A stretch of 36,751 bases of DNA from Candidatus Saccharimonadota bacterium (lineage in GTDB: Bacteria; Patescibacteriota; Saccharimonadia; Saccharimonadales; UBA4665). The translations under genes were made by a program, and so were the position numbers. Below the pieces are notes generated by a model that made no database searches, had not been told where the DNA came from, and saw only the letters and a list, made by a program, of their open reading frames with translations. Shown here in pieces: positions 10,678-12,173 of the stretch. Position 1 is the stretch's first letter; every line of letters begins with the position of its first letter. The stretch is taken from positions 1 through 36,751 of the forward strand of contig JAICKY010000008.1 of NCBI GenBank assembly GCA_025927655.1, in the 5' to 3' direction.

Positions 10678-11103
10678 TTAATCTTTGAGCAGGTATTGGC
10701 ACTTTGCGCAGTATCCTTGGAGTTCCAGCTGATGCTTTTCGAGTTGAAAACCAAGTTGCTCGGCCAGACGGTGCAGCTGCTGTTCTACGGCAGAATCCTC
10801 GGCGACCACTTGTGACTGGCCGCATAGCAAACAGGTAGCATGGTGGTGGTGCTCATGGAATTCATCGCTGAGTTCCAGCCGGTATTTCCAGCCAGTTTGC
10901 AGCCGCTGCACAATCCCGAGGCGTTCAAACAATGCAATAGCACGATACACGCTGGCTCTGTCTATCTGAGTGCAGTTGCTGACGATTTCGTGCATGGTCT
11001 GCGGTTCGCGGCCTTGCAAGGCGTCAAATACACAGCGTCGCTGTTTGGTTATACTTTGGCCGTGTTGTTTTAGCACTTGTGCCAGCTGATCGGTAGAGTT
11101 CAT
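10678..11103 (-). CDS. Fur/Zur-family metalloregulator
   Basis: ITKQRRCVFDAL..DRASVYRAIALFERLGIV winged helix; HEHHHHATCLLCGQ and CAKC metal sites; start taken at MNSTDQ (11103). Confidence 0.9.
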   Translation of the reverse strand: MNSTDQLAQVLKQHGQSITKQRRCVFDALQGREPQTMHEIVSNCTQIDRASVYRAIALFERLGIVQRLQTGWKYRLELSDEFHEHHHHATCLLCGQSQVVAEDSAVEQQLHRLAEQLGFQLEKHQLELQGYCAKCQYLLKD

Positions 11104-11121
11104 GTTGCAATCATAGCAGTA

Positions 11122-11140
11122 TTTGCGACACATTTGCAAA
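11122..11140. promoter_or_regulatory. Candidate Fur/Zur operator in the divergent promoter
   Basis: TTTGC-GACACATTT-GCAAA inverted repeat upstream of the regulator's -10 (TATGAT, minus strand 11110-11115). Confidence 0.45.
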
Positions 11141-11169
11141 AAATAATGTTGCTCCAGTAGCATGTATAC

Positions 11170-11235
11170 ATGCATCATGAACCTCACCGCAACTGTTGCG
11201 CGCCACATGAACATTACGCGCACCACCACATGTAG
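11170..11235 (+). CDS. Putative 21-aa His/Cys-rich micropeptide MHHEPHRNCCAPHEHYAHHHM
   Basis: ATG CAT CAT GAA CCT CAC CGC AAC TGT TGC GCG CCA CAT GAA CAT TAC GCG CAC CAC CAC ATG TAG; 8 His + 2 Cys of 21 residues; TAGCAT hexamer 6 nt upstream. Confidence 0.45.
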   Translation: MHHEPHRNCCAPHEHYAHHHM

Positions 11236-11450
11236 CACTGTCACTTGGGCCGGCACACTGCACAGGTGTCTGCGCTCACACGGAACATCAGTAATTCCAG
11301 CTGCCGCAGCTTGTCCGCAACCAACCGCGAGCTGACATATGGAATTCTGTAAAGAAGAAAAAAGAAGGAGGGCTGGCTGAGCGGCTTCACGTGAGCGGGC
11401 ACCGAGAGCTGGCTGAAATACGAACGATCTGTCACAATAGGAAAATAATT

Positions 11451-12173
11451 ATGTTACCGATTTTACTTTCTGCTGGAACTTTTCTATCAACATTACTCGG
11501 AGGGCTAACGGGACTACGCAACCGCGATAAACTGCATCGTCTGCTAGGCTTTACGGCCGGTGTTGTCATAGGAGTGGTGGCGTTTGACTTGCTGCCCGAG
11601 ATCTTTAATTCGCTCGGTCACGGCGTTACGGCACGCGATGCCATGCTCGCACTGGTGTGCGGGTTTCTGCTGTTCCATATCATCGAAAAATCAATCCTGA
11701 TACACCATAGCCAGGAGCACGAATACGAAGTCCATCACCACCCGCAGGTTGGGGTTGCCAGTGCACTCGCGCTTTCCGGGCACAGCTTCCTGGACGGCTT
11801 GGGTATTGGACTGGGGTTTCAGGCCGGCACGTCAGTTGGCATCGCCGTGGCCATTGCCGTAATTGCGCATGATTTCTCGGACGGGCTCAACACGGTGACG
11901 CTCATGCTCATAAACAAAAATAATCGCAAAAAAGCATTTGCGATGTTGATGGTGGATGCCCTGGCGCCGGTTGTCGGTGCAATCGTTGGTACATTGGTCC
12001 ATATTTCGGACGGTGGTCTGACGCTGTATCTTGGCTTTTTCGCAGGGTTCTTGCTGTACATTGGGGCTAGTGAAATTCTGCCGGAAGCACACAGCAAGCA
12101 CTCGTCCTACGTTACTATTGGCCTGACCGTTCTGGGTGCCGCCTTCATGTTTTTTGTAACCAGGTTCGCCTAG
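11451..12173 (+). CDS. ZIP-family metal (zinc) transporter
   Basis: MLPILLSAGTFLSTLLGG..., HSFLDGLGIGLGF and AHDFSDGLNTV motifs, His-rich loop HHSQEHEYEVHHHP; ORF can extend to 11391. Confidence 0.88.
   Translation: MLPILLSAGTFLSTLLGGLTGLRNRDKLHRLLGFTAGVVIGVVAFDLLPEIFNSLGHGVTARDAMLALVCGFLLFHIIEKSILIHHSQEHEYEVHHHPQVGVASALALSGHSFLDGLGIGLGFQAGTSVGIAVAIAVIAHDFSDGLNTVTLMLINKNNRKKAFAMLMVDALAPVVGAIVGTLVHISDGGLTLYLGFFAGFLLYIGASEILPEAHSKHSSYVTIGLTVLGAAFMFFVTRFA

What the first reader, a model, noticed from the sequence alone, without database searches (positions are those of the whole stretch)
11170..11235. His/Cys-rich 21-aa micro-ORF between a Fur/Zur-type regulator and a ZIP transporter
Seen: ATG..TAG encodes MHHEPHRNCCAPHEHYAHHHM, with 8 His and 2 adjacent Cys in 21 residues. 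It falls below usual gene-caller length cut-offs. It starts 6 nt after a TAGCAT hexamer, the same spacing as other putative leaderless starts here, with TTGCAA 18 nt further upstream. Knowledge: His/Cys clusters are typical metal ligands, and both neighbours are metal-homeostasis families. Inference: a metal-binding micropeptide or metal-sensing leader peptide controlling zip expression. Caveat: an overlapping 58-codon frame starting at 11162 (MYTCIIMNLTATVARH...) is also open, so the coding frame is unproven.
Basis: partly seen in the sequence, partly recalled or inferred. Interest (0 to 1): 0.8.

Follow-up and report, generated by a model that had tools for sequence, protein, structure and literature searches.

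The report
Histidine-rich micro-ORF heading a metal-transporter transcript
In one Saccharibacteria genome, a tiny 21-residue open reading frame very rich in histidine starts exactly where relatives start their metal-uptake gene, directly behind a conserved metal-regulator switch, so it is probably translated, but no relative carries it and its function is untested.

Summary
In detail: 11170-11235 encodes MHHEPHRNCCAPHEHYAHHHM, the only ORF of its kind in the window. In-frame His is above chance even when local dinucleotides are preserved (P about 3e-4; 0 of 300 simulated windows). Comparison across 71 operator sites next to this fur-family gene in Saccharibacteria explains its position. An operator, TTGCRACnnATTTGCAA, lies between the fur-family gene and zip or znuA. 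Its right half, TTGCAA, is the -35; a TAnnnT -10 follows 16-19 nt after the box; the downstream gene starts about 30 nt after the box (28-31 nt in 37 of 55), without a leader. In the window the ATG at 30 nt is the micro-ORF's, the mirror image of the fur start codon. Zip lies 281 nt further on, with a Shine-Dalgarno. The rival frame at 11162 begins inside the -10 and should not be on the mRNA. The micro-ORF and the sequence behind the box are absent from all relatives, including the sister species (ZIP 87% identical), so selection cannot be tested. Fur remnant, RNA element and intrinsic attenuator found no support. Best reading: a lineage-specific leaderless leader ORF of a metal-repressed zip transcript, probably translated; a metal-binding or cis-regulatory role is plausible but unproven.

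The parts
10678..11103 (-). fur-family metalloregulator gene (141 aa), leaderless start ATG at 11103
   Evidence: Pfam FUR 4e-16; only FUR-family gene found in this 87%-complete genome; TTGCAA-18-TATGAT-6-ATG
11110..11115 (-). -10 hexamer TATGAT of the fur-family gene, 6 nt before its ATG
   Evidence: sequence
11123..11139 (.). operator TTGCGACACATTTGCAA (inverted repeat TTGC-N9-GCAA) shared by both divergent promoters
   Evidence: 11101-11148 is the only stretch of the intergenic region conserved in family genomes; consensus next to 71 fur-family genes
11134..11139 (.). TTGCAA, right half of the operator and -35 hexamer for both directions
   Evidence: sequence; spacing of 18 to each -10
11158..11163 (+). 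-10 hexamer TAGCAT, 18 nt after the operator
   Evidence: TAnnnT 16-19 nt after the box in most relatives
11170..11235 (+). His/Cys-rich micro-ORF MHHEPHRNCCAPHEHYAHHHM, ATG at the predicted transcript start
11236..11450 (+). lineage-specific spacer without recognisable coding, RNA family or terminator
   Evidence: no family-wide DNA match, no Rfam match, folding z +1.8, no + strand promoter or terminator in the spacer
11439..11442 (+). Shine-Dalgarno-like AGGA, 8 nt before the zip ATG
   Evidence: sequence
11451..12173 (+). zip, ZIP-family metal transporter (240 aa), under purifying selection
   Evidence: Pfam Zip 2.5e-21; ZupT-like by NCBIfam, below cut-off; codon-position differences 33/13/148 against the sister species

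Best explanation
The micro-ORF is the first, leaderless reading frame of the transcript that a fur-family metalloregulator represses at the operator 11123-11139. When the regulator is metal-free it leaves the box, RNA polymerase uses TTGCAA-18-TAGCAT and starts at about 11170, and 70S ribosomes start on the 5' AUG and make the 21-residue peptide. In relatives this start position belongs to zip or znuA itself; here about 280 nt of new sequence separate it from zip, which is translated from its own AGGA site. Shown: sequence, position, non-random His content, absence from relatives. Inferred with good support: promoter, transcript start, translation. Inferred only: that the peptide matters, most likely as a metal-binding leader whose translation tunes zip on the same mRNA, less likely as a free micro-chelator.
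For: In 37 of 55 loci with operator and zip or znuA, the downstream gene has a start codon 28-31 nt after the box (mode 30), with TAnnnT at 16-19 nt; the micro-ORF ATG is at exactly 30, with TAGCAT at 18. The ATG is the mirror image of the fur start about the shared TTGCAA (each hexamer-18-TAnnnT-6-ATG). Leaderless TAnnnT-N5-7-start layouts occur at 16 of 36 long ORFs of the window, by a lenient search of in-frame starts, against 4.8% of random start codons. In-frame His is non-random. Zip is intact and constrained and has an SD-like site, as expected for a second cistron. An RTG triplet at the transcript start is necessary and sufficient for leaderless initiation in mycobacteria (PMC4633059).
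Against: A single genome with no homologue of the ORF: among 71 boxes next to fur-family genes no other has a His/Cys-rich ORF at this position. The sister species manages without it. His/Cys richness continues past the stop codon. The 215-nt spacer and the absence of structure or a terminator give no visible coupling to zip. No expression data.
Confidence: 0.5

Rival explanations
1. Non-functional by-product: an insertion displaced zip from its old leaderless start; the old ATG stayed next to the promoter and now opens a meaningless frame that is His-rich by accident or by a local CA-rich bias.
For: No homologue in any relative; His/Cys continue beyond the TAG; the region is unusually CAY-rich; only one genome.
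Against: In-frame His improbable even with local dinucleotides kept (3e-4); His codons are mixed and strongly in one frame (8:1:1).
Confidence: 0.38
2. Trans-acting micropeptide: a cytoplasmic metal buffer or chaperone co-expressed with zip (Met-His-His N-terminus would be an ATCUN-type site; CC plus His clusters could bind Zn, Ni or Cu).
For: Composition; predicted repression by the same regulator as the transporter; lack of hairpin or terminator argues against classical attenuation.
Against: 21 residues, no homologue, no known family; binding not tested.
Confidence: 0.15
3. Remnant of a longer gene (for example a duplicated fur C-terminal domain, or a Cys/His protein interrupted by the TAG).
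For: In-frame continuation HCHLGRH...; HEH..HHH resembles the HEHHHH motif of the fur-family protein; an imperfect inverted copy of the fur start at 11171-11189.
Against: Alignment to the fur-family protein is near the shuffle level (P 0.04-0.10, driven by His); no credible Pfam match; nucleotide comparison with fur not significant, with zip only marginal (0.03 in each orientation, among four tests).
Confidence: 0.1
4. The coding frame is the overlapping 57-residue ORF at 11162, not the micro-ORF.
For: It is open.
Against: Its ATG overlaps the -10 hexamer, upstream of the predicted transcript start; no SD; no family match.
Confidence: 0.03

Closest known systems
Leaderless Cys-rich upstream ORFs of mycobacteria (PMC4633059)
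   Same: Very short leaderless ORFs at the transcript start, enriched in one kind of residue, heading operons of related function
   Different: Those are conserved and Cys-rich, proposed to sense cysteine or redox supply; this one is His-rich, in a metal-uptake context, 215 nt from the next gene, and not conserved
CruR (DUF2946) copper-responsive uORF (PMC9426467)
   Same: A first cistron with metal-ligand residues heading a metal-transport operon
   Different: CruR is a widespread family with CXXC and a C-terminal RAPP arrest motif and Rho-dependent termination; neither motif is present here and Rho dependence was not testable
CutF-like copper-responsive nascent exported proteins (PMC9973294)
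   Same: Small upstream metal-binding cistron controlling a downstream metal-homeostasis gene
   Different: CutF has a signal peptide, a stalling-like C-terminal motif and an mRNA stem-loop over the next ribosome-binding site; the 21-residue ORF shows no signal peptide by eye, and folding shows no unusual structure
Histidine operon leader peptide HisL (from general knowledge)
   Same: Short, His-rich leader ORF
   Different: No his gene downstream and no terminator/antiterminator found

Membership tests
Leaderless upstream ORF | AUG at or next to the transcript start | tested here: inconclusive
   Position matches the conserved leaderless start of the regulon; no RNA data
Leaderless upstream ORF | Conserved ORF or conserved codon composition among relatives (usual evidence of function, not strictly required) | tested here: not met
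   Absent at the other fur-adjacent boxes examined, including both genus mates
CruR/DUF2946 | CXXC plus C-terminal RAPP, DUF2946 profile | tested here: not met
   No Pfam match; sequence has neither motif
His-type attenuator leader | Terminator/antiterminator downstream | tested here: not met
   No terminator in the leader, no Rfam match, folding z +1.8
Fur superfamily (regulator) | FUR profile and Cys4 structural site | tested here: met
   Pfam 4e-16; CxxC...CxxC in the protein and nearly all homologues
Zur (zinc-specific Fur) | Cys ligand in the sensor site | tested here: not met
   Position aligned with VcFur Glu is Glu in the window protein and all 27 homologues aligned; that Zur carries Cys there is from general knowledge
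Zur (zinc-specific Fur) | Controls zinc-uptake genes | tested here: inconclusive
   Operator faces zip or znuA-family genes in 55 loci, but both families also carry other metals

The most novel reading that the evidence does not exclude
A de novo, lineage-specific leaderless leader peptide: after zip was displaced from its promoter, a His/Cys-rich frame arose at the regulated start and acts as a second, translational metal sensor (nascent peptide or His/Cys decoding) on top of the fur-family repressor.
Probability: 0.2. Interest if true: 0.75.

Novelty: new variant of a known kind. Interest (0 to 1): 0.42.

Why it matters
If translated and functional, it would be a metal-linked leaderless leader peptide in an uncultivated, reduced-genome phylum, born recently enough that sister species lack it. 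Independently of the peptide, the work defines an operator-promoter unit for a fur-family regulon in Saccharibacteria (TTGCRACnnATTTGCAA, about 17-18 nt, TAnnnT, 5-7 nt, start codon), in which many metal-uptake genes lack a leader; I found no description of it in the papers searched.

Tried and rejected
Homologue searches of the intergenic DNA in 93 family genomes: only the operator region matches significantly. Pattern TTGCAA-gap-ATGCAYCAY in 393 order genomes: scattered matches; the only other one seen to sit at this box is G147, where it reads towards the regulator gene itself. Degenerate peptide pattern in viral contigs: none. Rfam: none. RNA folding: less stable than shuffles. Fur remnant and zip duplication: not significant, or marginal for zip. 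Weak Pfam matches MVD-like_N (0.008, below the curated cut-off) of the read-through frame and DUF4502 (0.03) of another frame: judged chance. Repeat element: the own-genome matches to the insert that were listed are 15-nt matches only. G018, with two genes between fur and zip, one ending in a His-rich tail, shows no more than a short chance-level match in the DNA search. Structure prediction not possible at 21 residues. A short query of the regulator's sensor segment against solved structures returned only purification-tag matches.

Full report
Observation. The micro-ORF is exactly as described. It is the outlier of the window: the next best ORF has 17% His, and none of 600 simulated windows holds one of at least 38%. 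Among 3,377 distinct ORFs of 15-60 codons in the fetched loci it is also the most His-rich, the next being 29%. Because the local region is CA-rich, the stricter test is a shuffle of the ORF itself with dinucleotides kept: 8 or more in-frame His in 0.03% of trials. A caution is that three further in-frame His and a Cys follow the TAG.

Context. The window is a whole contig of an 871-kb, 87%-complete genome; relatives found by its ZIP protein are largely titled Candidatus Saccharibacteria. The gene to the left, on the minus strand, is a fur-family regulator, the only FUR-profile match found in this genome; the gene to the right is a ZIP transporter. No ZnuA-family match was found in this genome. 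The divergent pair is widespread in the order. In the sister species G002 the ZIP is 87% identical and the two genes are about 100 nt apart; in the other genus mate G001 the same operator faces a znuA-like gene.

Operator and promoter. Only 11101-11148 is conserved in DNA. Its core is TTGCRACnnATTTGCAA. Over 96 distinct operator-like sites, 71 lie next to a fur-family gene and 55 of those face zip or znuA. The downstream start codon lies 28-31 nt after the box in 37 of 55 (27 at exactly 30 by nearest candidate start) and a TAnnnT -10 lies at 16-19 nt in all but four. The start positions were taken as the nearest in-frame candidate, so a few may be misassigned. The palindromic TTGCAA at 11134-11139 serves as -35 in both directions: fur reads TTGCAA-18-TATGAT-6-ATG, the other side TTGCAA-18-TAGCAT-6-ATG. 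The two ATGs are mirror images about that hexamer.

The position of the micro-ORF. In the window, the ATG at 30 nt is that of the micro-ORF, and zip begins 281 nt further on with AGGA 8 nt before its ATG. No promoter was found on the plus strand in the spacer by a simple scan, though the same scan also misses TAGCAT, so it is weak evidence. Other leadered members of the regulon have leaders of a few tens of nucleotides; none has a short His/Cys-rich frame at the start site. Leaderless-type starts are common in the window itself (16 of 36 long ORFs by a lenient search, against 4.8% of random start codons). The 57-residue frame at 11162 starts inside the -10 and so should not be on the mRNA.

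Mechanism. Shown: sequence, composition, conserved operator, position. Well-supported inference: derepression under metal limitation starts a transcript at about 11170 whose first codon is the micro-ORF AUG; leaderless initiation needs only an RTG at the 5' end in mycobacteria (PMC4633059). Open: whether the peptide acts. Cis-control has precedents in metal biology (CruR, PMC9426467; CutF, PMC9973294) and in Cys-rich leaderless uORFs, but the motifs and structures that define CruR and CutF are absent here. A trans-acting metal-binding peptide is possible. A by-product of zip displacement is nearly as likely as function.

Regulator identity. By its partners the regulator is Zur-like, but the sensor position where characterised Zur proteins have Cys is Glu here and in all aligned homologues, and some sites in the order face genes that look like a nickel/cobalt-type transporter or a P-loop ATPase by eye. 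I therefore call it a fur-family metalloregulator, metal unknown.

Limits. One genome; no expression data; the MAG could be misassembled in the insert; conservation of the ORF cannot be tested with the genomes held.

Noticed in passing
11123-11139 and 70 homologous sites: A conserved operator with a fixed-distance leaderless promoter for a fur-family regulon across the Saccharibacteria order; it predicts regulon members and transcript starts.
   Followed up: partly
L132, L133, L136-L138, L206; L170, L172, L179: In some relatives the same box next to the fur-family gene precedes a membrane protein with a GITPDEH motif (NicO-like by eye) or a P-loop ATPase (MKIAFVGKGGSGKST), so the metal of the regulon may not be zinc everywhere.
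   Followed up: no
L090:1913-3140 (G018): Two genes stand between fur and zip, the first starting at the leaderless position after the box, the second ending in a His/Lys-rich tail (KSHDHDDHNHTPHE...KKKKKK).
   Followed up: partly
11236-11256: In-frame His/Cys (HCHLGRH) directly after the TAG stop of the micro-ORF: possible once longer ORF or local bias.
   Followed up: partly
11365-11372: Strong Shine-Dalgarno-like AAGGAGGG with no standard start codon at a normal distance.
   Followed up: no
11140-11147 and 11442-11449: AAAATAAT occurs just after the box and just before zip, bracketing the insert; the sister species has AAAATAATTAT after its box, like the copy before zip here. Possible duplication or recombination trace, seen after the fact.
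   Followed up: no
11161-11174: Perfect 14-bp palindrome GCATGTATACATGC across the end of the -10 and the micro-ORF start.
   Followed up: no
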